From positions 2,852,001 to 2,916,000 of the forward strand of contig NC_026656.2 in assembly GCF_000004075.3 (NCBI RefSeq): 64,000 nt of DNA. Reading direction: 5' to 3'. Each line of letters opens with the position of its first letter. Position 1 is the stretch's first letter. The notes under the pieces are model-generated. The model was not told the DNA's origin. It did no database searches and was given only the letters and a program-made list of their open reading frames with translations. Source of the stretch: Cucumis sativus (Eukaryota > Streptophyta > Magnoliopsida > Cucurbitales > Cucurbitaceae). This document shows positions 31,961 through 51,890 of this stretch, piece by piece. Both the position numbers and the translations under genes were made by a program.

Positions 31961-34900
31961 TCAGAGCAAGGATGTATCAACCCTTTCAATCAGAAGCCGA
32001 ACATCACCTCTTCCGTTAAGACTGTCATAACTGCGAGAACCTGCAATCAAACGGTGGCTACCAGCAAAGTTAAATAAATCATCATAGCTCCCCGCTTTAT
32101 GAAAGAGTATCAAATAGCGTTTGGAGGATATTGTGCGGGTTGTGATATTGGTTCCTCTTTCACCATCTCCACGCTTACGGTGGTGGGACGATGACCAGGA
32201 ACCTCCATTAAACTTTCCTCCTCGAAAATGCAAAAAGCTTGTAGAATTATCTAAAGCTTCTCTTGCCCGAACGTTGTCATTTGGCCAATTAAATTTATTG
32301 CATAAAGAGTTGGCGAGTGTAGTGTCTCCCATGCCTTCCATTCCACATATAAATGTCTCACCATTATATGTTACGTGCAATGGAAATATCATAGGTTGTA
32401 TATTCGAATCGATTATTGCTTCTGGATCATAATTTGCCGCATATAACATTGCTTGGGAATTGGACCAGCACGACATTTCTTCAAAAAAGCGTTTGAGAAG
32501 AAGTTCCTCAATATCCCTATGCCATTAAACAAACATAATCATAACATACACATCTCCCCTTTGAGATCTATCATACTTCAACTCCAAACAAAAAAAAGTA
32601 AATAACTAACAAGTAAAGAATCAACTTACAGACTTTGCAATTTCTCCAGTTGATAAAAATCAGCATAATTTACCATCGGCCACTTGACATCCGTTTGTAT
32701 CGCATGGAGCTCTTCAGTGACATGGACACCATACCTTGTTATAGTTGCATTAACCTCACTATGTGCTTCATGAACCTCAAACCAGACCAAAACTTTATTC
32801 CAGTCATTCACCTCCATGGAACCCAACGCTAGAGAAGTTGTTACTAACCACATATATTCTGATTTTGAGGGAAGAAATGGTCTTGACAATGAAAAATAGA
32901 GTCTATTGCAGACGAATATATTGCATGAAATCCGGGCACCTCTTTCAGATGAATTTCCATTTACTTTGAAACTAACACAGGCAGCCAAAGTTCTTTCCAT
33001 GTCTGGATAGTGACGAAAGCTAGCACTCACCAAATTGGATGTAGTCTTATAGCTGAACCATTCTGGAATCTCAATCCCCGTTAATAAAAACTCTCTTGAA
33101 ATCTCACCCATTGTGAGGTCCTATAGAGAACAAAAATTCTCAATGCATTAATTTGTTTACAAGGTAAGAATATAAATCGAATGGAAATTAGAGGCAAACC
33201 TGTTTTTTTGATATTATATCCACAATGTTATCTGGAATTCGAGCCAACGATTCACAACCACAGGCATCCATTTTTTGTATACTCTCAGGAAGGCTTGGAA
33301 TTTCTTGAAGAAACTTACAATTCCTTAATTCAAGATTCCACAACGACATGAACTTGTGGAGACATGAGGGTAAACTAGAGAATTTGTTTTCGGACAAGCG
33401 TAGATCAGATAAGAAAGGAGCAACGTCACATAAAATATCCAAAAAATTTGCATTTGATATGTTGCAAGACTGAAGATCCAACAAAGTGATATGGGAAAAA
33501 CTTTCATTTGGTACTAGGAAATGGGGAACTTTTAAGCTCCACAAAGCAGTTTCCATCATTTTTGAAGGAGAGCATACTGGTTGGATGGTTGGGTTCCATT
33601 TATCGGGAAACATTCCAAATATAGAACAGCCACTAAGAAGAAGATTCTTAAGACTCCTTAACAAATAAATTGTATTGGGAAGGGAGATGAGGTTTGTGCA
33701 ACCATTAAGTTTTAATGTCCAAAGCTTAGTGAGATATCTAATTGATGAAGGTAACTCCTTTATGGCAGTAAAATCCAAATTCAAGGTCCTTAAAGATTTC
33801 ATGTTTTCAGCAATTGTTGGGAAGCTTTCAAGCTTACAACACCCAGAAAGTGATAAACATAGAAGAGACTTTAAGCTGAGATAGCTTGGAAGCTTTACCA
33901 GGTTAGTGCATTGTTTAAGGTACAAACCTTCAAGCTTATCCAAAGATCCAACAGATTCATGAATTACTCTTAAATTTGTGCATTCATAGATATGCAAGCT
34001 CGTAAGGTTTGATGCTGAAGATAAGTCTGGAATTTTCTCAAGTTTTTTGCAGTAAGAGAGATTCAATTTTTTAAGAGAACTTAACATGAAGTAGCCTCTT
34101 GGAAGCTTTTTAAGGTTAGAACAACCATCAAGGTTTAGGACAGTAAGCTTATCGAGAGAGAAAACAGACTTATCTATCATTCCTAAATTTGTGCAATTGG
34201 AGAGATACAACTCTTCAAGGTTTGATGCTGCAGAGAAATTAGGAATTTTCTCTAAGAAAGTAGAGTAGCTAAGATCAACAAGCTTCAACCTTTCACAATC
34301 CTAAAACACATTGGAAAATAAACCAAAAGGAAAAGAGGTATGTAATTAGCATACCAAACAAAATTTAGATAAATCAGTGCCTAAAACAATAATTGTAAAT
34401 ATAAAAAATTATAGAATAATATAGGTAAAAAAATTCTATAAATAAGCATTAATCAGTATTTAGGCAAACTAATAATAAGGGAGAAATTTTAAAAAATAGC
34501 AAATTTTACAAAATATTTACAACTTATAGCAAAATTTTTAAATTCTATCACTAATATACTACGGTGATAGAAGTTTATCAATGACTATCATTAATAGAAT
34601 CCAAAATTTTGCTATAGCTTGTAAATATTTTAATTTATTTTGCTATTTTAAAAAATGTTTATATATATATATATATAAGTATTTAATAAAGAAATTTAAA
34701 AAAGAAATAGTTATAAAAAAACAAATTATTTATAATTCAAAAAATTGCATATAGATACCTTAACTCAACTCTGCATCCTAAGTACAAACATATGAACCTA
34801 GAAAAAGCAACTCTCCACCACACACATAGACAATATAAACTCCACATCATCATATCCCAACTTAACGCCACAAAAAACTCCTTACATTCCAAAACTATTA

Positions 34901-37194
34901 TTATAGGTCTGTGTTATTTGTGAATTATTTTAAAATGTAAGTTACCCATTTATTGCATATATAGAAATAAACTTTACCTCAAGTCTTTTCCCAAATGTTT
35001 TGATGAAGCTATGTTGCAAATCTAGTCCAACAAGATTTTTCATAGTGAAGAACGAAGGAAAAGTTGGTTGACGAAATCCATGCCACTTAATCCACTTTAA
35101 GCTATCAGGTAGGTACTCAATCTTTGTAGAAAATCTTGCATTTTGAACAATAAGCAATCTCAAATTTTTCATTTTTCTAAAAGCTTGTGGATCCACATCC
35201 AGCCTCGTGGAATTAGGAAAGTCCAACTTTATGCCTTTAACTGCGTCTGTTCCCTGAAAAAGTTATATATTTAGTAACTTAACAACATTTCACAAACCTT
35301 CTTCGTTATTTGAAATATTATAAATAAGTATGTTAAAGAGAGTTACTCACTTAATTATTAACAAGCACCTCCCAAACATCCTGTACCAACCACAACCTAC
35401 TCCTCTTTCCAAGCTCAAGAGATTCACCACAAACTATTTTATGACCCATCTGTTTTATTAAATCATGCATTTGCATTATGCCATTTTCAATCGTAATAAA
35501 TGAAAGATCCGTGAGTACTATAATTCCAAAATCTAGATTTACATGACATGCACTCAACATATCCTTAACGTACTTACCTTTCTCTCCCACAAGTAAACAA
35601 GAAATATCAAGAAAGATATCCTTTACTTTGTCTTCCAGACCATCAAAACTTAATTGAAGAATATCTTTGATATCTTTGTTCAAAGAGTTTTCAAATTCAT
35701 CTAATATACTACACCATTCTACTTGATCTCTGGTACAGAGGAAAGAACCCAAAACAACGAGAGCCAAAGGATGGCCTTTACAATAACTTGTAGCACGTTT
35801 TGAAAGGTCTAAATAATTACTTGATGGATGATTTTTCTTGAAAGCATGCCAACTAAAAAGCTCAATAGCTTTGTCTTCATCCAATCCTAGAATATTTTTC
35901 ATTTCATCAAAGCCATGGCTAGAAAGTAAATGTTTGTTCCTTGTCGTCACAATGATTCTACTGCCTTGGCCAAACCAATCACGCCCGCCAACCAATGCTT
36001 CTAACTGCTCAAGCTTATCTACATCATCAAGAACTATAAGGACTTTCTTCAAACACAATCTATTCCTTATGATGTTAATTCCTCTATCAAGGTTGACAAC
36101 CTTCAAATCAACCGTTAGGATCTCATAGAGTAGGGTTTCCTGTAGTTGAGCAAGGCCATTGAATTGCTTTGAAGCTTCTCTAACATTTGATAGAAAGCAG
36201 CAACCTTCAAATTGGCTAGCAATTTTGTTGTATAAAGCTTTAGCCAAAGTTGTCTTACCAATGCCTCCAATGCCATATAAGCCCACCATGTAAACACCAG
36301 TATCAGACTCATACTCATGTTGTTTTCGATAATGGAATTTGTTGCTCTTCTCAAAAAGACTATGTGAACGAAGCTTCATATATTCTAGTTTAGAATCAAT
36401 TCCAACCGGATACTTAGCTACATATAAGGGCGTGCAAGTGCGGTTTAATACAGACAACACTTTTTTAACAAGATCTCCAATAAGATCAGCCTCCTTCCTG
36501 TTGTTAAGTGCATAATCATACCAAAATTAAAAGGGATGAACACATTTAATTATTAAATTGCATCTTGAGAGAGAATGAATCTTCTAAAATTAAAATTTGG
36601 TCTGTGTGCTTATTTACATACATACGTAAATACATACATACGTACATACATACAAATCATGGGCATAAAAATGAAATTTGGAATGGAAAAAAAAAATGTC
36701 TGTAAAAATATATACCTAGTTCCTAGATTCCAACCAGACAAGTTAGCAGCAGTAGTTAAAGCTTCCCTCCAAATTTGGGTCTTTGTTTGGAACTTAGGCT
36801 GATGTTTGGCCAGTGCTTCTCCGAAGCTACCAGTTTGTTTTCGTATATCGGACGGATCCACCTTATAGAAAACTGGGAAAACATTCTGGCCCTTGGATTT
36901 CTTACACTCAATTATGTTCACCAACTCATCCAGACACCAGGAAGAAGATGCATAATTTTGAGAGAATATAACAATAGAAATGGAAGCTTCCTGTATAGAT
37001 TTGAAAAGGGATTCAGAAATTTGCTCACCCCTTTCGAGCTTGTCGTTTATGAAGACATTGACACCCTTTTGACGCAAGGCCATATCAAGATGACTGGTGA
37101 AATTGGTGCGAGTATCCTCTCCTCTGAAACTCAAAAACACATCATAAGTCCATTTGAAAGTCGGTGATTCTGTTGCAACAGTGGAAGAATCCAT
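31961..37194 (-). CDS. TIR-NBS-LRR resistance protein (TNL-1), stop codon before LRR
   Basis: Intracellular immune receptor of the TNL class. Exons: 36716-37194 (TIR), 35351-36497 (NB-ARC), 34978-35253 (first LRR linker), 33200-34300 (LRRs), 32630-33120 (C-JID), 31961-32516 (C-terminal extension). TIR has YDVFLSFRGEDTR and the NADase glutamate E90 in WCLDEL. NB-ARC has the P-loop GGIGKTT (K241), 'VLIVLDDVD', 'IIVTTRN', 'HPLAL' and MHD, all intact. All exon phases agree (1350 codons), but codon 542, the last of the NB-ARC exon, is TAA directly before the GTGAGT donor. The paralogue has TCT there. The product is therefore either a 541-residue TIR-NBS protein or, if an upstream in-phase GT (GAG/GTGCTT) is used, a full-length TNL lacking a few residues. 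The C-JID reads 'EIPEWFSYKTTSN'. Family certain, functional state open. Confidence 0.88.
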
Positions 37195-38340
37195 CAGAAA
37201 GAAAGACCAAGACTAAACAAAAGAGAAAAAAATTGAAGAATGATGTATTAGATAAAGAGAAAAAATCAGACGCTTCAACTCTCAATATAATTTGATTCAG
37301 TTGGCACCGCCAGTAAAGAAGTTGATTGATACAGTACAGCTTCCACTTTCATCCAAAGACTTTTCTCTACCTCTCCCATTTTTCCATCAACATCGTAATT
37401 AAATTGAATGGAACATAAAAGTCAAGAAGGTGGGAAGTCTGTTTGTAGAGTTCATATTTGGTTCACATGTATGGTTTTTATTTTTTAGAAAACTGAAATT
37501 AAAAAACTAACACTTCCTTTCATAACCATTTGGCTGTTAGTTTAGGATTTTTGAAAACAAAACTTATTTTCTCCTCCAATTCTCACTGTAGTTTTTCTTT
37601 GTTCTTGAGTAACAATTTGGACTTTAGCTAATTCCATGAGTAAAAACAAGTTTTTAAATACTAATTTTAGTTTTCGAAAATTGAGTTTGTGTTTTGAAAA
37701 AATAACAGTAGAAAGTAAATGGTTAAATTTAGAAGTCAATATTCACTCTTTTATCTTTGTCTGTTTTTTTGTATATTTAACCGACTTCTCAGAAAAGCCA
37801 ATTTTATCATAAATTTTCAATTTAGTTAGATTGATGCCACAGATATTTATCTTTAAATAACATCATACTTAACATTATAATTATAATGATCATAATGTCG
37901 TATTAGCATTGCCTGTCAAATTCGTCATCCGAAACCAAAGAACAATAACTGGATTTTGGCTCTAAATAAATAATCGGAAAAAAGTAGCTAGGGGATAAAG
38001 AAGACAGGGTTCTTTTTTTGCTTCTTTTAATATAAACTTGAAGACAAAAGATGATTTGATTTCACTTTTTAATACAATATTTTTCCTTTAATCAACTATA
38101 TGTAGTAGGTTTGAATGATAGCAAAAGAAAGAAAAAAAAAACTATAGCAATTATTTAATTTCTACTTTGTTACGGGGAACAAGCGTGTATGCGTTAGTTA
38201 ATTCTTGGAAAATTCAAGGAAGATTCTAAGAAATGCATGCCTAAATATTATAGGGAAATATTTTAGAGTGTTTTGTGTAATATAGTCTTCAAACAATCGA
38301 GACTATATATTATACTTCCTTTTTTATATATATATAAATT
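37195..38340 (-). promoter_or_regulatory. TNL-1 upstream region, shared in pieces with other copies
   Basis: No gene here. The proximal half (37,217 to about 37,718) is nearly identical to 50,040-50,482. The distal half (about 37,719-38,333) matches the TNL-2 upstream region at about 47,313-47,960. A W-box core (TTGAC, complement) in 'gcctgtcaaattcgtcatcc' near 37,911 is kept in both copies (second near 47,515). W-boxes bind WRKY factors; a role here is inference. Confidence 0.55.
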
Positions 38341-38560
38341 TGACTTCTTGTGTGAATCTAACCATAGTCCCACATTCTTTAAATAAGAGGATGATCTCGA
38401 ATATATAAGTAAGGATAACTATCTTCGTTGGTATGAGACTTTTTAGGATGATACCAAAAGCAAAATCATGAGGATGTATACTCAAAGTGGATAATATCGT
38501 ACCATTGTAGAGATATTTGGTGGAGTTGTTGTCCGAACAATAATAAAATAGAATATTGCT
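38341..38560. mobile_element. possible solo LTR / TRIM-like fragment
   Basis: The words 'agtcccacattctttaaata' and 'atatataagtaaggataac' in this spacing resemble the start of the 'agtcccacat...tataagt' LTR/TRIM sequences common in dicot genomes. No internal region, primer-binding site or clear ends were found, so only a weak call is possible. Confidence 0.35.
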
Positions 38561-38849
38561 TATGAGACAAAATGCATTTCCTTCAAAAGCTCAAGTTCTA
38601 GTTCCCTTTTATCATTATCCAATTGATAACCGATTTATATGTCTACTCTAAATGTTAGCATTCATATGTTGGGGGATTTCAAACTAAGATCTGATGAACA
38701 ATGGATTTATGTTTTGACGTTTAACAATATATAATTTGGGGAAATGCTACTTCTAGTACGAGTCATCCGAAGAATACAATGCAGTTCATTGAATTTTTCT
38801 TTGATACGTTGAGTTGAGGATATACATCATGAGCCCCCATGCAAGTGTG
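38561..38849. other. spacer with no recognisable feature
   Basis: Nothing supportable. Open frames are short and non-repetitive. Confidence 0.3.
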
Positions 38850-38999
38850 CCATAAGGATTGATCAATTCTTAATTTTAATAGCAAAATCATACTTTCCTT
38901 TTACACTTCCACCTTCTGAATAATCAGATTTAATCCAACGCTCTGCTCTAACCCATGTCCCTTAATTATATTCTCTCTAACATTCAAATTTTCAAATGC
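38850..38999 (-). pseudogene. relic of TNL terminal exon
   Basis: The plus strand from 'gtgccataaggattgatcaa' to 'aacattcaaattttcaaatg' aligns in order with the 3' end of the TNL-2 last exon (about 41,150-41,305). It keeps 'aatccaacg' and 'tagcccatg'-like words, but with many substitutions and no open frame. It is a decayed third copy of the C-terminal extension. Confidence 0.55.
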
Positions 39000-39152
39000 C
39001 AAATGAAAAAGAAAAGACTTCCAACTTTATGCCTGAATCCAAATTGGTGTGTATCATGCAAATCACCAAATGAGGATATGAACCACGCCTTCATCCACTG
39101 CCCTAAAGCACAGGAATTCTGGAAGAAGTCTAAAGAGGAAATTGGGACAAGT
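39000..39152 (+). mobile_element. LINE reverse-transcriptase zinc-binding (zf-RVT) fragment
   Basis: Frame 38,955-39,167 includes 'KKRLPTLCLNPNWCVSC' and 'DMNHAFIHCPKAQEFW'. The C-x2-C...H-x4-C spacing and the closing aromatic are those of zf-RVT, the domain after reverse transcriptase in plant LINEs. Only about 45 residues remain. The upstream side fuses into a TNL relic and the downstream side is cut by the foldback element at 39,153. Confidence 0.65.
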
Positions 39153-40370
39153 ATTAAATGCACCTGATATGCTTGAACTCCTATTTATACACTTCATATA
39201 CTATTGATATACACTTGTAAACTTGATTCATATATTAATTTGATAATGATTCACTTTACTGATATGCTTTAACAATATATTATTCATATACTTGATAATG
39301 ATACACTAAGTTAAATCATTCATATACTTAATAATACTCTAATGAACTACATAATTTGAAAAAAATGAAAACATGCATTAACTATACTAGCAAATTAATA
39401 CATATAATATAAGTATATCACAAGACTAATATACGAAACTGAGACAAAGTAAAACCAAAAAATTAATGTAAAAACATAAAACAAAATCAGTTGGAATCAG
39501 ATTCAACTCAAAATACACATCGAAGAAAATAAAATAAAATCCCAAATGAAGTTAAATTACTTCAATCAACCACCATTATATTATATTTCATTTTGCAATT
39601 ATTGTACTATTGATATTTTAAAATTAAGATTAAGACATAAAGAATAAATAATTTTTCTAGTATAAGAATAAATAAATAATTAGTAGAGCATTCAAAAGAG
39701 GAAGAAAAAAAATAGGAAGAAAAATAAGTTATTGAATGGTAGTTTAGGAATAATAACAAATTTAAGATATTTTGTCATATTTGCAAAATTCTAAAACAAT
39801 GTGCTATAATTGCTAATATTCTCAAAATGTTATCCTATGCAATTTCTCAAAAATTATTTATTCTTTCGGTCTTAATCTTAATTTTAGAATATTAATAGTA
39901 CAATAATTGTAATATGAAATATAGTGGTTGTTGATCGGAGTAATTTACCTTCATTTGTGATTTTTTTTTTTTACTTTTTTCCACGTGTATTTTGAGTTGA
40001 ATTTGATTTCAAATGATTTTTTTTATATTAATTTTGTTTTGGTTTTATTTTGTCTCAGTTTTGTATATATCAGTGTTGTGATATACTTATATTATATGTA
40101 TTAGTTGGTTAATATACTTACTACGTGATTTTCATTTTTTCAAATTTTATGCAGTTCATTAGAGTATTATTAAGTTTATGAATGATGTAACTCAGTATAT
40201 CATTATCAAGTATAACAACAAAATATTATTACAAAATATCAATAAAGTAAATCATTATCGAATATATGAATCAAATTTACAAGTGTATATCAATGGTACA
40301 TCAAGTGTATATCAATGGTACATCAAGTGTATATATAAGTAGGACTTCAAGCATATCACGTGCATTTAAT
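39153..40370. mobile_element. foldback element with ~0.5-kb inverted arms
   Basis: The left arm (39,153 to about 39,656) is the reverse complement of the right arm (about 39,849-40,370). Left starts 'attaaatgcacctgatatgc' and right ends 'gcatatcacgtgcatttaat'. Inner and middle checkpoints also pair: 'gttcattagagtattatt' near 40,155 with its complement near 39,330, 'tattttgagttgaat' near 39,990 with its complement near 39,505, and 'tcttaatcttaatttta' near 39,870 with its complement near 39,625. The spacer is about 190 bp. The right arm carries an extra tandem copy of about 22 bp ('tatatcaatggtacatcaag'). There is no transposase. It is a large MITE or foldback transposon; a transcript would form a long hairpin. 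Confidence 0.82.
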
Positions 40371-40770
40371 CAATCAATTGTATAAGTGAAGAATACTAAA
40401 TGTATCTGTAGTGCATCAGGTGTATCAAACATATCATGTACATCAAACATATCAAATTTAAATTTGTTGAGTGTTCCAATGAAGCATAACAAGTTTATTA
40501 GCAGTGTATCAAACTTATAAATGAAGTCTTTAAGTATCAAAGCCTAAGTGGTATCAAATATATCAAGAAGAATCAAGTGTAACGAGGAGTATTATAATGT
40601 GTATCAAGATATTTCAGGTGTGTATCAAAAGGTATCGAATGTATAAAACAGTACCAGATGCATCAAATGTATCAATCAAATGTATCGGGTGTATAAAAAA
40701 GTATCAGGTGTATCAATGAGTATTAAGTGTATCAGACGTGTATAAGGTGTATCAAAGGTATATTAGTAAC
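40371..40770. repeat. degenerate (tgtatca)n tandem repeat
   Basis: About 400 bp dominated by variants of 'gtgtatcaa', 'tgtatcagg' and 'gtatcaaat', with no fixed period. The same words occur at the outer end of the foldback element's right arm ('aagtgtatatcaatgg'), so this may be amplified subterminal sequence. Confidence 0.65.
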
Positions 40771-41132
40771 AAAGGTATTTGTGACATTTCACCTTTTGAT
40801 GTGTGGACTGAGTTTCATTTTTTTGTCATTTTTACAAATAATAAAGTGTGTTTAGGATTAATTATTATAACTTATTCTGATATTTTTGAGGTGCCCCAAA
40901 TAAATATAAATATGTTTAGGATTGTTTATGCTTCAACATGCATGGAACAATAAAATAATTCTGGATCTCAATTTGATTTTATGGCTCTGTTTCTAGATTG
41001 TAAACATATAGAGTACATAGGGGTATAGATAAACAAAAATTAGGTGTGGCCACCTTCTACCATTTTCTAAAGACACTGGTAAGTAATTTAAACATTTGCA
41101 ACACAAACTTGGAAAATTAATTTGAGGGTGGA
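40771..41132. other. TNL-2 3' flank
   Basis: No gene. The part from about 40,890 ('tgtttaggattgttta') to 41,130 ('acacaaacttggaaaattaa') matches 51,430-51,665 and so marks the 3' flank of another TNL copy there. Confidence 0.5.
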
Positions 41133-44100
41133 TCAACGGGCCCAGGGTTGCCATAAGGATGGATCAACCCTTCTAATAATGAAATGATGATTTCTTGCAA
41201 CATCATGATCTTCAAATCTGTAAATCTCAATCCAACGAGGCTTTGCTATAGCCCATGCACTTACAAATCTGTATACTCTATCATCCAAATTTTCAAAGTA
41301 TATGTAATACATTTTGGATGATGTAATTGTACTATGGTTTGCGATAATGTTGGTCCCTTTTTTACAACCTCCACGCTTGTCGAGGCCCGAATATCTCATG
41401 AAACGGTACTGTGATTCTTCGACCAAGTAAAAGCTTGTAGGATTATCTAAAGGTTGTCTCCAATCATTATCATATGACCAATTAAATTTGTTGCATACAG
41501 AGTTGGCTAGTGCAGTTTTTGCCATGCCTTCCATTCCACATATCACTGTATCACCATTATATGATACGTGCAACGGGAAAACCATAGGTTGTACGTTGGA
41601 ACCAATTATTGCTTCTGGAGCATAACTTCCTGCATGCAACATTGCTTTGCAATTTGACAAGGAGGACATTTCTTCAAAAAAGCGTTTGACAAGAAGATCC
41701 TCAATATCCCTGTGTGCCATTAAGTTAAAACAACATATTATCATATCGGTCCATATATTAACCTAATCCTACTTTCACTCAAAAAAAAAAAAAAAAAGAG
41801 TAAACAATCAACTTACAGATTTTGCAATTTCTCCAGTTGATAAAAATCAGCATAATTTACCACCGGCCACTTGACATCCATTTGTATTATCCCATGGAGC
41901 TCTTCAGTGACATGGACACCACATCTTCTTATACTTGTATTTACCTCATCATGAACCTCAAACCAAACCAAAACTTCTTTCCAATCATTCACCTCCATGG
42001 AACCCCAAGCTAGAGAAGTTGACACTAACCACACATATTCTGATTTTGATGGAAGAAATGATCTTGAAAAAGAACAATGCAGTCTATTGCAGATGAATAT
42101 ATTGCATGAAATTCTTTCAGATGAATCTCCATTCACTGTGAAACTAACACAGGCAGCCAAAGTTCTTTCCATGTCTGGATAGTGACGAAAGCTAGCACTC
42201 ACTAAATTTGATGTAGTCTTATAGCTGAACCATTCTGGAACCTCAATGCCTGTTAGTAAGAACTCTCTTGAAATCTCACCCAATGTGAGGTCCTACAAAA
42301 TAATTGAAGAATTTTGATATGCATAAAACTTTTTACAAAATATCATAACAAATTGAATGGAAAGAAACAGAACCTGTTTTTTTGATATTATATCCCCAAT
42401 GTTATCTGGACTTTTACCCACCAATTTACAGCCATTCGCATTCAAAATTTGTATGTTTTGAGGAAGGTTCGGAATTTCTTGAAGAGACCTGCAATTTCTT
42501 AAGTCAAGTTTCAATAGGGACATTAACAAAGAAATTGTATTGGGAAGGGAGATGAGGCCTGTGCAACTGTCAAGGTTTAATCGAGATAGATTGGTAAGAT
42601 ATCCCATTGATGAAGGTAACTCCTTTATGGCAGTAAAATCCAAATCCAAGGACCTTAAAGATTTCATGCTTTCAGCAATTGTTGGGAAGCTTTCAAGCTT
42701 ACAACACCCAGAAAGTGATAAATATCGAAGAGACTTTAACCTAAGATAGCTTGGAAGCTTTACCAGGTTAGTGCATTGTCTAAGGTTCAAATGGTCAAGC
42801 TTATCCAAAGATCCAACAGATTCATGAATCACTCTTAAATTTGTGCATTCGTAGAGATGCAAGCTCGTAAGGTTTGATGCTGAAGATAAGTCTGGAATTT
42901 TCTCAAGTTTTTTGCAGTAAGAGAGATTCAATTCTTTAAGAGAACTTAACATGAAGTAGCCTCTTGGAAGCTTTTTAAGGTTAGAACAACCATCAAAGTT
43001 TAGGACAACAAGCTTATTGAGAGAGAAAATAGACTTATCTATCATTCCTAAATTTGTGCAATTGATGAGATACAACTCTTCAAGGTTTGATGCTGCAGTG
43101 AAATCAGGAATTTGCTCTAATAAAGTAGAGTAGCTAAGATCAACATACTTCAACCTTTCACAATCCTAAAACACATTGGAAAAGAAACCAAAAGAAAAAT
43201 GGGTATGTAATTGGCATACCAAACAAAATTTAGATAAAATATTGGCTAAAACAATAATTGTAAATATAGAAAAATATATAGAATATATGTTAAAAAAAGG
43301 AAAATTTTTAAAATAGAAGAATTACCAAACTATTTACCGTCCAAAATTTTAATCCAAGCCCAAAATAAATAACCAAAATTTTAATCAAGTCTAAAGTATC
43401 CATTTTCTCTCTATAGGATAGGATGTAAATACTTTCCATTTTCTTCTGCTTATGTAAATTTTCCTTAAAAAAAATCTATAATAACCATTAATTAATATTT
43501 AGGCAAACTAATAAAACTCCATATACAAAAGTAAATCGATTTGCATATCAAGATTAATCATCTATTTGCATTAATCCACAACTATTATATTGCATATATA
43601 ATAAGGAAAATTGCATTAGATGACAAAAAAAATTAGAAAAAAAGCATTTCATAGCACCTCTTTTTGACAAATATGACAATTAATTAAATATATCATACAG
43701 CTATCAGAGGACTATTTGCTTTTAAATTTGTTACTTTTGTAATTTAGAAAATGTAGTGATATAAACCCCATTATCATAAAAGTTTTTGCTATTTTTACAA
43801 ATGCCCCATAAAATAACAACACTTTTCTTTCTTTTTAAAAGGTATTGTAATTAAAGCATGAGAGAATCAAACCTCTAATATCAAAATTGATAGTACAAAA
43901 ACTATGTCAGTTGAGCTATACGTACATGTTGGCCACAACACACTTTTACAACTGTTAGTTTTAGAGATTATATGAATTTTAGTATCCAAGTTTATAAAAA
44001 TAATCATATTTGGTCCTTGAGTTTTAAAAATGTATCTTCTTACTCACTTGATTTTTAAGAAATAATAGGTTTATAACGTCCTAAAAGTACTTTATGGTTT

Positions 44101-47100
44101 TTTTAAAATAATTATATGATATTTAAAACTAGAAAAAAAAAAAGTTTTAGAGAGGATATGAATTTTAGAAGCCATATATTATTCTAATTTACAATGTCAT
44201 AGAACTATTTAAAATAAAAGCATAAAATTATTTGAAGGTCTTTTAAACCTATTTTTAAAAACTTAGGGACTAAAAGAATACATTTAGAAAACACGGGATC
44301 AAATTATTCTATTATTATAAATCTGAAATTAAAAAGGTCTACTTTTAAAACTTATGGACCAATGGCACGTATTCATGAAAACTCAGATGTTAAAAAGGTA
44401 ATTTTACATCAAATATATTATTTTGAATTTAGCAGATTGTAAACTAATTACCAACAAAATTGTAATTTAGTCAATTTATAGTGGAAATTTGGTTTCAAAT
44501 TTTAGTTTGATTTGATCTTAAATCAAATTTAATTTTTTTTAAAAAAAAGATAAAAACGTAACAAAATCAAAATTTTGGAACTTAAGGACACATTATAATT
44601 GGACAATCTTGTATGCAACAAATCTAGTTCAAGTAAGTTACATAACATAAAAAGAATCTACCCAATACATTATTTTGCATCATGATGGTTATCATACTCA
44701 AAAGGATAACACAAAAAATTACAAATTTAGAAAAAAATTAGCGGATGTTCTTAGAATTTATCCATGATAGATCATATCACTCATATGAGTTTATTAATGA
44801 TAGATTATATGACTAGTAGGAGCTATTGTTGTGCGATAGATGAATCTATCGTTAATAGATATATTTTGTAATTCTTAAAAAATATATGACTAGCAAGAGT
44901 TAATCGATGATAATTTTTGCTAATCCATGTATTTGTGATTTTTTTAAAAATATAATTAAGCTACCTATTAAAAGTTTTTAAGAAAAACAATGAAGAAACT
45001 AAACCTCATTTTCATACCTTAAGTCTTTTCCCAAATCTTTTGATGAGGCTATGTTGCAAATCAAGTCCAACAAGATTTTTGGTAATGAAGCAGGACGGCA
45101 AAGTTCGATGAGCAAATCCATGCCATTCAATCCACTTTAAGCTATTAGGTAAGTACCTAATCTTTGTACAAAATCGTGCATTTCGAATGATAAGCAATCT
45201 CAAATTTTTCATGCTTCCAAATGCCCGTGGATCTACATTTAGCCTTGTGGATTTAGGCAAGTCCAACTTTATGGCTTTAACTGCATCTGTTCCCTGCATA
45301 AAGTCATGTATTTAGTAAACACTACTTACAACTTACTTTGACAAACATTTCTTATCATGTGAAGCCTTGAAAATAAGTAAATTATCAATACTTTAGGTAA
45401 GAGAGTTACTCACAGAATTATTAACAAACACCTCCCAAATGTCGTGTTCCAACCACAGCCTACTCCTCTTTCCAGGCTCAGATGATTCATTATGAACTAT
45501 ACTACGACCCATTTGTTGTATTAACTCATGCATTTGCACTCTATCCATTTCAACCGTAATAAGTGAAAGATCCATGAGTATCATAATTCCAAAATCTATG
45601 TTCAAATGACATGCACTCAACATTTTTTTAGCACACTTGTATTCTTCTCCCACGAATAAACAAGAAATGTCAAGGAAAATATCCTTTATTTTGTCTTCAA
45701 GTCCATCAAAACTTAATTGAAGTACATCTTTAATATCTTTTCTCAAAGAGTTCTCAAATTCATCTAGCATACCATTCCATTCTTCTTTAGCTCTGCCGCA
45801 AAGGAAAGAACCCAAAACAACGAGGGCCAAAGAGAGACCTTTACAATAACTTGTAGCACGCTTTGAAAAATCTAAATAATTACTTGATGGATGACTTTTC
45901 TTAAAAGCATGCCAACTGAAAAGCTCAAGAGCATGGTCTTGATTCAATTCTTGAATTTTATGCTTTTCATCAAATCCATGGCTAGAAAGTAAATGTTCAT
46001 TCCTTGTCGTCACAATGATTTTACTACCTTGACCAAACCAATCACGCCCACCAACCAGTGCTTCTAATTGCTCAAGATCATTCACATCATCAAGAACTAT
46101 AAGAACTTTCTTTGAACACAGTCTACTTCTTATGATGTTAATTCCTCTATCACGACTGACAATAACCTTCAAATCCTCTTTTAAGATCTCATTGAGTAAG
46201 GTTTCCTGTAGTTGAACGAGCCCATGCTTCGAAGCTTCTCGTCTAACATCTTGTAGAAAGCAGCATCCTTCAAATTGGGTAGCAATTTTGTTGTACAAAG
46301 CCTTAGCCAAAGTGGTCTTACCAATGCCTCCAATGCCATACAACCCCACCAGATTAACACCCTCGGACCCAATATGAGAGACCAACTCCTCAATTTTCCT
46401 TAGTCGAGAATCAACTCCTACTTGGTGCTTGGCTACATGTAGTAATTGCATTGGATTTACTGCAGACAACACTCGTTTAACAATTTTTTGGATAAGTTCA
46501 GCCTCATCCTTGCTGTTGTAAAGTAACATCATACAAAAAGAATCAGAATTTGGAAATAGTAGATAAATTATATTTAAACTTCACTTGGACAATGAGTCTT
46601 CAAAGATTAAAAAAAAATAAAAAAAAATACCTATTTGCTAGATCCCAACCAGACAAACCAGCAGCAAAAGTCAAAGCTTCCCTCCATGGTTGAATCTTGT
46701 TGGTCAATAACTTATTAGCTTCATGTTTGGCCAATGCTTCCCCAAACCCACCGGTTTGTTTTCGAACCTCGGATGGATCCACCTTGTAGAACACTGGCCA
46801 AACTGCTTGTCCTTTGGATTTCTTACACTCAATTATTTTCACCAGTTCATCCAAACACCAAGTTGAAGATGCATAATCTTTAGAGAAAATAACGAGGGAA
46901 AGTCTAGATCGCTCTATAAATTTGAGAAGAGACTCATAAATTTGTTCACCCCTTTTGAGTTTGTCGTCTATGAAAACGTTGACTTCCTTTAGACGCAAGG
47001 CCATATGAAGATGACTGATAAAATTGGAGCGAGTATCTTCTCCTCTGAAACTAAAAAACACATCATAATCGTAATTGAAATTGGGAGAAGAAGAAAATGA

Positions 47101-47127
47101 TTCATCTCCAACAACAGAAGAACCCAT
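41133..47127 (-). CDS. TIR-NBS-LRR resistance protein (TNL-2), open throughout
   Basis: Paralogue of the downstream TNL, same strand and same exon plan: 46631-47127 (TIR), 45414-46512 (NB-ARC), 45018-45293, 42374-43165 (LRR), 41817-42292 (C-JID), 41133-41709 (extension); 1238 aa with every phase consistent. The start chosen is MGSSVVGDE at 47,127; the frame is open further upstream, but that part is hydrophobic UTR-like sequence. TIR: YDVFFSFRGEDTR and catalytic-type E94 in WCLDEL. NB-ARC: GGIGKTT (K231), VLIVLDDVN, IIVTTRN. Two motifs deviate: the GLPL motif reads GLSLAL, and the MHD motif reads MHE. The LRR exon is 264 codons against 367 in TNL-1. The intron at 43166-45017 is 1.85 kb and has picked up a SINE and AT-rich repeats. 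Probably NADase-competent by motif; whether it confers resistance cannot be told from sequence. Confidence 0.92.
43845..43940 (-). mobile_element. tRNA-derived SINE head in TNL-2 intron 3
   Basis: On the minus strand 'tagctcaactgacatagt' resembles an internal RNA polymerase III A box, and 'agaggtttgattctc' a B box (GGTTCGANTCC), about 45 bases apart. This is the layout of a tRNA-related SINE head. It is not a functional tRNA: there is no acceptor stem and the arms do not fold. Confidence 0.55.
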
Positions 47128-51399: not shown

Positions 51400-51890
51400 A
51401 TAAATTCTTGTCTAACTTTAGATAAATATCTTTAGGATTCTTTATAAGCACACATGGAATAGTAAAATAAATTCTTGATCTTCAATTTCTTTTATGGCTC
51501 TCTTTGTGGATTGCAATCATATATAGTACATAGGGGTATAGACAAAATAAAAAGTTTAGCTGTGGTTTAAACAAAGTAAAACTTTCCCCCCTTTACCATT
51601 TGATGTAAAGACACTAGTAAGTAATTTTAAGATATGCAACACAAACTTGGAAAATTAATTGAAGGGTGAATCATCTAAAAATTTAACAATCCAGTTAAGT
51701 GATCTGTTGCATGGAGAGTTGGCGATTGCAGCGTCTCCCATGCCTTCCATTCCACATATCACACTGTTTCATCATTATATGTTATGCACAACGTTTCTTT
51801 GCAATTTGACCAAGCAGCAGTGTGTCTTGAAATAAGCATTGGGCAAGAACATCCTAAACATCCTTCAAGTGCCATTAAACAACATATAAT
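51400..51890 (-). pseudogene. relic of TNL terminal exon with its 3' flank
   Basis: Bases 51,700-51,870 align with the last exon of TNL-1/TNL-2 over the 'cccatgccttccattccaca' word and the following 'atgttatgcacaac' region. A small insertion shifts the frame next to a stop. Bases 51,430-51,665 match the TNL-2 3' flank. So this is the tail of another TNL whose body is missing to the right. Confidence 0.65.

What the first reader, a model, noticed from the sequence alone, without database searches (positions are those of the whole stretch)
31961..41709. P-loop-like segment in the C-terminal exon of both TNLs
The last exon of each TNL, after the C-JID, contains a short run that looks like the gene's own NB-ARC P-loop. 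In TNL-1, 'GMEGMGDTTLANSLCNKF' (exon 31961-32516) aligns without gaps to 'GIGGIGKTTLAKALYNKI' of its NB-ARC exon. Ten of 18 residues are identical and most others are similar; codon by codon I count 39 of 57 bases identical. In TNL-1 the catalytic Lys is Asp. In TNL-2 the sequence is 'GMEGMAKTALANSVCNKF', with Lys kept. The decayed copies keep part of it. If real, these receptors carry a second, degenerate nucleotide-binding-like motif behind the LRR, acting perhaps as an intramolecular mimic or decoy of the P-loop. Chance or convergent similarity remains possible because the segment is short.
Basis: partly seen in the sequence, partly recalled or inferred. Interest (0 to 1): 0.75.

Follow-up and report, generated by a model that had tools for sequence, protein, structure and literature searches.

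The report
Worn NB-ARC exon ends plant receptors
The last exon of these plant immune-receptor genes is a worn-down copy of the gene family's own nucleotide-binding exon, attached behind the effector-binding end of the protein and with most of the residues for nucleotide chemistry lost; what it does there is not known.

Summary
The motif is real and is the best-preserved part of something larger. The whole terminal exon ("tail") aligns with the TNL NB-ARC exon from near the splice acceptor through P-loop and kinase-2 to RNBS-B: profile-profile probability 97.7%, 158 columns, none of 297 column shuffles near it. With the P-loop masked, or using only the part before or after it, the match stays in register and beats every shuffle. 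Intron phase (2) equals that of the NB-ARC exon. Five readable copies form one group. The P-loop lysine is D, K, G, E, E in them; Walker-B acids are lost or altered and ARC1/ARC2 are missing, so a working NTPase is unlikely. The P-loop block is the most constrained part of the tail (pN/pS 0.46 against 0.98 downstream in four copies). TNL-2 is an intact 1,238-codon model; TNL-1 has an in-frame TAA ending its NB-ARC exon, so its tail may be untranslated. AlphaFold was uninformative; the mimic/decoy idea is untested. A new variant of a known kind.

The parts
41133..41709 (-). TNL-2 terminal exon: degenerate NB-ARC exon copy ('tail'), open to its stop codon
   Evidence: Profile-profile match to NB-ARC exons; splice model
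41664..41708 (-). TNL-2 tail DIEDLLVKRFFEEMS, counterpart of the NB-ARC exon start KDEAELIQKIVKRVLS
   Evidence: Alignment A2; coordinates
41484..41537 (-). TNL-2 P-loop-derived motif GMEGMAKTALANSVCNKF (Lys kept, preceding Gly is Ala)
41280..41327 (-). TNL-2 kinase-2 counterpart ITSSKMYYIYFENLDD (LDDV replaced by FENL)
   Evidence: Alignment A2; coordinates
41817..42292 (-). TNL-2 C-JID exon, donor CT|GTAAGT, phase 2 into the tail
   Evidence: Pfam C-JID E 1.7e-4, under the curated cut-off; splice sites
45414..46512 (-). TNL-2 NB-ARC exon (exon 2), phase-2 acceptor
   Evidence: Pfam NB-ARC E 3.2e-33
41133..47127 (-). TNL-2 gene, six-exon model, 1,238 codons without internal stop
31961..32516 (-). 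TNL-1 terminal exon: degenerate NB-ARC exon copy, open
32471..32515 (-). TNL-1 tail DIEELLLKRFFEEMS, counterpart of the NB-ARC exon start
32291..32344 (-). TNL-1 P-loop-derived motif GMEGMGDTTLANSLCNKF (catalytic Lys is Asp)
32075..32131 (-). TNL-1 kinase-2 counterpart ISSKRYLILFHKAGSYDDL (LDDV replaced by FHKA)
   Evidence: PDB profile hit to ROQ1; A2
32030..32056 (-). TNL-1 RNBS-B counterpart HRLIAGSRS
32630..33120 (-). TNL-1 C-JID exon, phase 2 into the tail
   Evidence: Pfam C-JID E 0.0013, under the curated cut-off
35351..36497 (-). TNL-1 NB-ARC exon (exon 2)
   Evidence: Pfam NB-ARC E 8.4e-30
35351..35353 (-). In-frame TAA, last codon of TNL-1 exon 2 before the GTGAGT donor
51691..51765 (-). 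Decayed remnant of a third tail in the window
   Evidence: tblastn 64% over 25 aa, E 4.7e-6 within the window

Best explanation
The terminal exon of these TNL genes is a captured, heavily diverged copy of a TNL NB-ARC exon (exon 2). It came to lie behind the C-JID exon of an ancestral TNL in this cluster and was spliced on in frame because the C-JID donor and the NB-ARC acceptor are both phase 2. The gene family then multiplied with it. The product is TIR-NB-ARC-LRR-C-JID plus about 190 residues matching the nucleotide-binding subdomain up to RNBS-B, without ARC1/ARC2. SHOWN: homology to NB-ARC exons, shared phase and near-identical exon start, one group of tails, loss of the Walker-A lysine in 4 of 5 readable copies, loss of Walker-B acids in TNL-1, local constraint on the P-loop-derived block. 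INFERRED: the capture route, that TNL-2's tail is translated, that it cannot hydrolyse nucleotide, and that it works (if at all) as a structural or regulatory appendage beside the C-JID rather than as a second switch.
For: hhalign of the 5-tail profile against 21 NB-ARC exons: probability 97.7%, score 87.3, tail 3-165 to NB exon 9-178; shuffled-column maximum 22.3 (297 of 300 shuffles ran). P-loop masked 43.3 (max 23.6 of 300), upstream part alone 26.2 (max 18.5 of 300), downstream part alone 30.7 (max 21.1 of 299), each in the register of the full match. Search of PDB sequences: best hit of the 4-tail profile is ROQ1 at its NB-ARC, P-loop to RNBS-B, E 7e-4. The TNL-1 tail alone finds a true NB-ARC exon in the 226.6 Mb genome (E 0.031, residues 11-163 of 186); the L004 tail finds four (E 0.155-1.03, among 12 matches). 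Tail HMM back-search over the loci held reaches 16 TNL NB-ARC exons at E 5.7e-10 to 3e-5. Acceptors: CATAG|G GAT and CACAG|G GAT (tails) against AACAG|G AAG and AACAG|C AAG (NB-ARC), all phase 2, whereas exon 3, LRR and C-JID acceptors are phase 0. Tails form one side of a branch, 100/100. The P-loop block has the lowest pN/pS of 160 windows.
Against: Single tails score weakly: Pfam gives no match for either window tail, and TNL-2 alone scores 7.9 bits against the NB profile (its shuffle maximum is 5.6). The TNL-2 and L066 tail searches of the genome listed no NB-ARC exon that I recognise (8 and 9 matches). The downstream half evolves near-neutrally (pN/pS 0.98). Several copies are broken: TNL-1 stop in exon 2, L003 tail interrupted near its 5' end, L066 gene without a recognisable LRR, two more only remnants. 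Both AlphaFold models are poor (mean pLDDT 38 and 44). No transcript evidence could be had. The source NB-ARC lineage is not resolved (long branches).
Confidence: 0.85

Rival explanations
1. Same origin, but the tail is a functionless relic: translated in some genes, tolerated, and on its way to loss. The conserved block is only the slowest part to decay.
For: In four tails the downstream part has pN/pS 0.98 and the upstream part 0.79; whole-tail Ka/Ks 0.41-1.31 over ten pairs against 0.30-0.40 over six NB-ARC pairs; most copies broken; L004's locus also holds a younger decayed NB-ARC exon lying downstream.
Against: The P-loop-derived block keeps tail-specific residues (GMEGM, LANS) that differ from the NB-ARC consensus. 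Its pN/pS of 0.46 is the lowest of 160 windows; 3 of 5000 random column sets are as low. The block was bounded after seeing the alignment, and with L066 added its ratio is 0.62, so this is indicative only. The C-JID exon also evolves fast (Ka/Ks 0.31-0.92 over ten pairs), so a high ratio alone does not show loss of function.
Confidence: 0.45
2. Short chance or convergent similarity of one motif inside an unrelated exon.
For: The motif is only 18 residues; Pfam is silent on the window exons.
Against: Matches persist and stay in register with the P-loop masked or removed; shared phase and near-identical exon start; single-sequence hits to true NB-ARC exons genome-wide.
Confidence: 0.02
3. Only the P-loop segment was copied into the tail, by local gene conversion from NB-ARC.
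For: The P-loop is the strongest part of the match.
Against: Upstream and downstream parts match on their own at the right places. Residues fixed in the tails (Met, Glu, Asn, Ser) are not those of the P-loops.
Confidence: 0.03
4. The tail is a second working nucleotide-binding switch.
For: TNL-2 keeps Lys and Thr (GMEGMAKT); L004 keeps an acidic pair in the kinase-2 counterpart.
Against: The lysine is D, G, E and E in the other four; TNL-2 has Ala for the last P-loop glycine and FENL for LDDV; the tails end before ARC1/ARC2.
Confidence: 0.02
5. The tail is an effector bait or intramolecular P-loop mimic.
For: It sits directly behind the C-JID, the effector-contacting module of ROQ1 and RPP1 (PMC8813719, passages); it keeps a P-loop-like block while losing catalytic residues.
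Against: No test available; selection is weak outside the block.
Confidence: 0.12

Closest known systems
TNL NB-ARC exon 2 (PF00931 NBD), e.g. ROQ1 NB-ARC (PDB 7JLU/7JLV)
   Same: Order of elements from exon start through P-loop, kinase-2 and RNBS-B; phase-2 acceptor
   Different: Lysine lost in 4 of 5 copies, Walker-B acids lost in TNL-1, a few columns missing at RNBS-A, no ARC1/ARC2, placed behind the C-JID, below Pfam thresholds
NLRs with partial or second NB-ARC (Pib with two NB-ARC domains, PMC4917536; partial duplications noted in RefPlantNLR, PMC8559963; 'NLN' subclass in pepper, PMC11899730; RPP2A listed as TNL with 'AAA (2x)' in PMC9528084)
   Same: A second, sometimes partial, NB-ARC-like domain in one receptor (passages read)
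   Different: Here it is the terminal exon of TNLs behind a C-JID, and too diverged for domain scans. The pepper classes were assigned by Pfam, so those second domains are detectable; where the partial duplications of RefPlantNLR lie was not checked
Duplicated post-LRR (PL/C-JID) exons, Ma gene of plum and peach TNLs (PMC4851768)
   Same: Exon duplication lengthening the C-terminus of TNLs (passages)
   Different: There the repeated exon is the PL/C-JID exon; here it is the NB-ARC exon
NLRs with integrated domains (RRS1 WRKY, RGA5 HMA; review PMC9528084)
   Same: Extra domain at the C-terminus of a receptor (passages)
   Different: The source is the receptor family's own NB-ARC, and no bait role is shown

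Membership tests
NB-ARC domain (PF00931) | Profile score over the curated cut-off | tested here: not met
   No Pfam match for either window tail; NB-ARC found in 2 of 4 tails scanned, best E 0.03
NB-ARC domain (PF00931) | Common descent with NB-ARC exons | tested here: met
   hhalign 97.7%, 158 columns; 0 of 297 column shuffles reach it
NB-ARC domain (PF00931) | Walker A GxxxxGK[ST] | tested here: not met
   TNL-1 D for K; TNL-2 A-K-T; L003 G, L004 E, L066 E for K
NB-ARC domain (PF00931) | Walker B / kinase-2 LDD | tested here: not met
   TNL-1 FHKA, TNL-2 FENL, L003 FYEE; L004 FDDR partly keeps it
NB-ARC domain (PF00931) | ARC1 (GLPL) and ARC2/WHD (MHD) subdomains | tested here: not met
   Tail aligns only to NB exon profile position 178 of 396 and ends soon after
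NB-ARC domain (PF00931) | P-loop NTPase fold | tested here: inconclusive
   AlphaFold mean pLDDT 38 and 44
C-JID / post-LRR exon (PF20160) | Profile match | tested here: not met
   No C-JID match for the two window tails at E up to 10; the preceding exons do match, below the curated cut-off
NLR with integrated domain (bait) | Extra domain fused in the same reading frame | tested here: met
   TNL-2 six-exon model without internal stop, GT-AG introns; no transcript seen
NLR with integrated domain (bait) | The domain contacts an effector | not testable with these tools
   No interaction data

The most novel reading that the evidence does not exclude
The tail is a pseudo-NBD under selection: a Walker-dead nucleotide-binding subdomain that folds behind the C-JID and either packs against the receptor's own NB-ARC to hold it off or presents a P-loop-like surface to effectors. 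It would be an NLR regulated or baited by a dead copy of its own switch.
Probability: 0.15. Interest if true: 0.8.

Novelty: new variant of a known kind. Interest (0 to 1): 0.5.

Why it matters
In many TNLs the C-JID is followed by regions that include ones of unknown function (PMC8813719, passages). Here one such region gets an origin that domain scans miss, and a route by which it can arise: an NB-ARC exon and the C-JID donor share intron phase, so misplacing the exon in a tandem cluster gives an in-frame fusion. A survey of post-C-JID regions with NB-ARC profiles becomes an obvious test. If the tail is functional, it would be a dead nucleotide-binding module used as a regulator inside an immune receptor.

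Tried and rejected
Chance similarity: rejected by shuffles and by masking the P-loop. P-loop-only gene conversion: disfavoured. Jelly-roll/C-JID extension: no Pfam support. Working NTPase: disfavoured by residues. Structure prediction of the TNL-1 tail with 4 sequences and of the TNL-2 tail with 24 (5 tails and 19 of the 21 NB-ARC exons; mixing them in is partly circular) gave mean pLDDT 38.1 and 44.1; both set aside and no fold search was made. The tree could not place the tails within a particular NB-ARC lineage.

Rows dropped: of 24 sources scanned for TNL NB-ARC exons, 4 (L045, L080, L088, L092) gave none by my motif filter and are not in the 21-exon profile; L079 and L082 were left out of alignment A2. 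3 of 300 shuffles of the full tail and 1 of 300 of the downstream part failed to run. L066 was left out of the 4-tail selection figures; with it the pooled pN/pS is 0.62 (block), 0.85 (upstream), 1.06 (downstream). Tail Ka/Ks for L003 uses only its open 130-codon part, and the TNL-2 and L004 tails there include one or two codons before the acceptor; several tail Ks values exceed 1 and are near saturation.

Papers: searches, of which I saw listings (titles and starts of abstracts). Passages read; one whole section of PMC3599390. No paper text holds GMEGMG, GMEGMA, LANSLCNKF or TTLANSLC. In the listings I recognised no TNL with an NB-ARC-derived exon behind the C-JID; most subscription papers and all supplements are outside what I could search.
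Full report
WHAT IS THERE. The two peptides named in the finding are present at 32291-32344 (-) and 41484-41537 (-). They lie in the terminal exons of two TNL genes, which I modelled with GT-AG introns. TNL-2 (47127 down to 41133) has six exons and 1,238 codons without an internal stop. TNL-1 (37194 down to 31961) is open except for a TAA that is the last codon of its NB-ARC exon, at 35351-35353. At that codon TNL-2 has TCT, and the genes of L003 and L004 have TCG. An in-frame but weak alternative donor 18 bases upstream could skip the stop (sequence); this is unproven. So the tail of TNL-2 is a good coding candidate, and that of TNL-1 may be untranslated.

MORE THAN A P-LOOP. The window's own genome is held (226.6 Mb, 88 contigs; window at C2:2852001-2916000). 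Searches with single tails found one more open copy (L004), one partly open (L003), a further one beside a C-JID (L066), two decayed ones (C1:14854131 and window 51.7 kb), and tandem fragments on C4 and C7. The 4-tail profile searched against PDB sequences had ROQ1 as best hit, at its NB-ARC, from P-loop through kinase-2 to RNBS-B (E 7e-4; 8 distinct sequences at E up to 10, two of them ROQ1). I then built a profile of 21 TNL NB-ARC exons from the same genome. Profile-profile alignment with five tails gave probability 97.7% and 158 columns, from tail position 3 (NB exon 9) to 165 (NB exon 178). Shuffling tail columns gave at most 22.3 against the observed 87.3. Masking the P-loop left 43.3 (shuffle maximum 23.6); the upstream part alone gave 26.2 (18.5) and the downstream part 30.7 (21.1), each in the register of the full match. 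The reversed tail gave 15.4.

Single sequences are much weaker: 22.1, 18.6, 14.6, 12.8 and 7.9 bits for L004, TNL-1, L003, L066 and TNL-2, against maxima of 12.0, 3.6, 2.9, 8.6 and 5.6 in 1000 shuffles each. Pfam has no match for the two window tails, and of the four tails scanned together two touch NB-ARC at E 0.03 or worse. Still, in genome-wide translated searches the TNL-1 tail alone reached a genuine NB-ARC exon (C3:33654314, E 0.031, residues 11-163 of 186, among 8 matches). The L004 tail reached four (E 0.155-1.03, among 12 matches). The TNL-2 and L066 tails (8 and 9 matches) listed none that I recognise. The tail HMM, run back over the loci I held, reached 16 TNL NB-ARC exons between E 5.7e-10 and 3e-5 (E-values for that small set).

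EXON STRUCTURE. The tail acceptor (CATAG|G GAT ATT GAG in TNL-1, CACAG|G GAT ATT GAG in TNL-2) has the phase of the NB-ARC acceptor (AACAG|G AAG GAG in TNL-1, AACAG|C AAG GAT in TNL-2), phase 2, and the two exon starts fall within about one residue of each other in alignment A2. Exon 3, LRR and C-JID acceptors are phase 0. The C-JID donor (CT|GTAAGT) is phase 2, so an NB-ARC exon placed downstream would join in frame. The apparent stop after the C-JID (LQSL*, LQNL*) lies inside that donor. The locus of L004 suggests the route: 0.6 kb beyond its tail, on the same strand, lies a younger decayed NB-ARC exon, starting at its own exon start, with no TIR match between (tblastn at E up to 0.01).

HISTORY. 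The five readable tails lie on one side of a branch (100/100), which points to one capture before L004/L066 and TNL-1/TNL-2/L003 parted; the NB-ARC donor lineage is not resolved because of long branches. C-JID matches lie at 28 distinct places (15, 16, 3 in common; lower bounds). Tails were found beside 6 of them: TNL-1, TNL-2, L003, L004, L066 and the decayed C1:14854131. No tail was found at the other 22 by the four whole-exon tail searches. For 15 of these 22 the DNA within about 1.5 kb was also scanned with the tail HMM, giving NB-ARC fragments but no tail; for 7 it was not read.

FUNCTION. The Walker-A lysine position is D (TNL-1), K (TNL-2), G (L003), E (L004) and E (L066); in TNL-2 the glycine before it is Ala. 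LDDV of kinase-2 is FHKA, FENL, FYEE and FDDR in the first four. ARC1, ARC2 and WHD are absent. A working switch is therefore unlikely. Ka/Ks over the tail is 0.41-1.31 (ten pairs), over the C-JID 0.31-0.92 (ten pairs) and over the NB-ARC exons 0.30-0.40 (six pairs). Within the tail (four copies) the 32-codon block FPLHV...NKF has pN/pS 0.46, the upstream part 0.79 and the downstream part 0.98; with L066 added the figures are 0.62, 0.85 and 1.06. The block is the lowest of 160 windows, and 3 of 5000 random column sets are as low. I drew the block after seeing the alignment, so the test is indicative. The conserved letters (GMEGM, LANS) are tail-specific, which argues against simple conversion from NB-ARC. 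My reading: an appendage beside the C-JID with weak constraint on the P-loop-derived block, or a relic; I cannot separate these with one genome. Structure prediction did not help (mean pLDDT 38.1 and 44.1).

COMPARISON. Partial or second NB-ARC domains are known: RefPlantNLR notes small NB-ARCs that look like partial duplications (PMC8559963, passages), Pib has two NB-ARC domains (PMC4917536, passages), pepper has an NLN subclass (PMC11899730, passage), and a review table lists RPP2A with 'AAA (2x)' (PMC9528084, passages). Exon duplication behind the LRR is known for the post-LRR exon of Ma (PMC4851768, passages). The published cucumber TIR-NBS motif table shows no such C-terminal motif (PMC3599390, section 9), and another survey reports no extensive chimeras of R-genes in sequenced cucurbits, meaning sequence exchange between homologues (PMC3679737, passages). 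In my searches (listings) I recognised no report of an NB-ARC exon reused as the terminal exon behind a C-JID. The scab-resistance locus Ccu was mapped to an R-gene cluster of 670 kb on cucumber chromosome 2 (PMC3599390, passage); that this window lies in it is only a guess.

Noticed in passing
window 35351-35353 (-): In-frame TAA as the last codon of TNL-1 exon 2, directly before the GTGAGT donor; the gene would encode a TIR-NB protein unless a weak in-frame donor 18 bases upstream is used.
   Followed up: partly
L076:1419-2234 (-) (C2:2646501 + offset): A second, decayed NB-ARC exon without a TIR match, 0.6 kb downstream of the L004 tail on the same strand.
   Followed up: partly
L068 and L072 (C4:26560498-26561096), L073 (C7:13986809-13987408): Two tandem copies each of the L066-type tail, away from any C-JID hit; the two loci share about 1.8 kb at 85% identity, and L073 has an antisense ORF that looks to me ULP1-protease-like (recalled, not tested), suggesting capture by a mobile element.
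   Followed up: partly
L066/L020 (C2:2847253-2848602 +): Shortened TNL in which a truncated NB-ARC exon lies directly before the C-JID exon (no LRR match), followed by a tail.
   Followed up: no
G000 C5:6040780-6041351 (+): P-loop-bearing NB-ARC fragment about 50 bases before a C-JID-like match, a second arrangement without LRR between.
   Followed up: no
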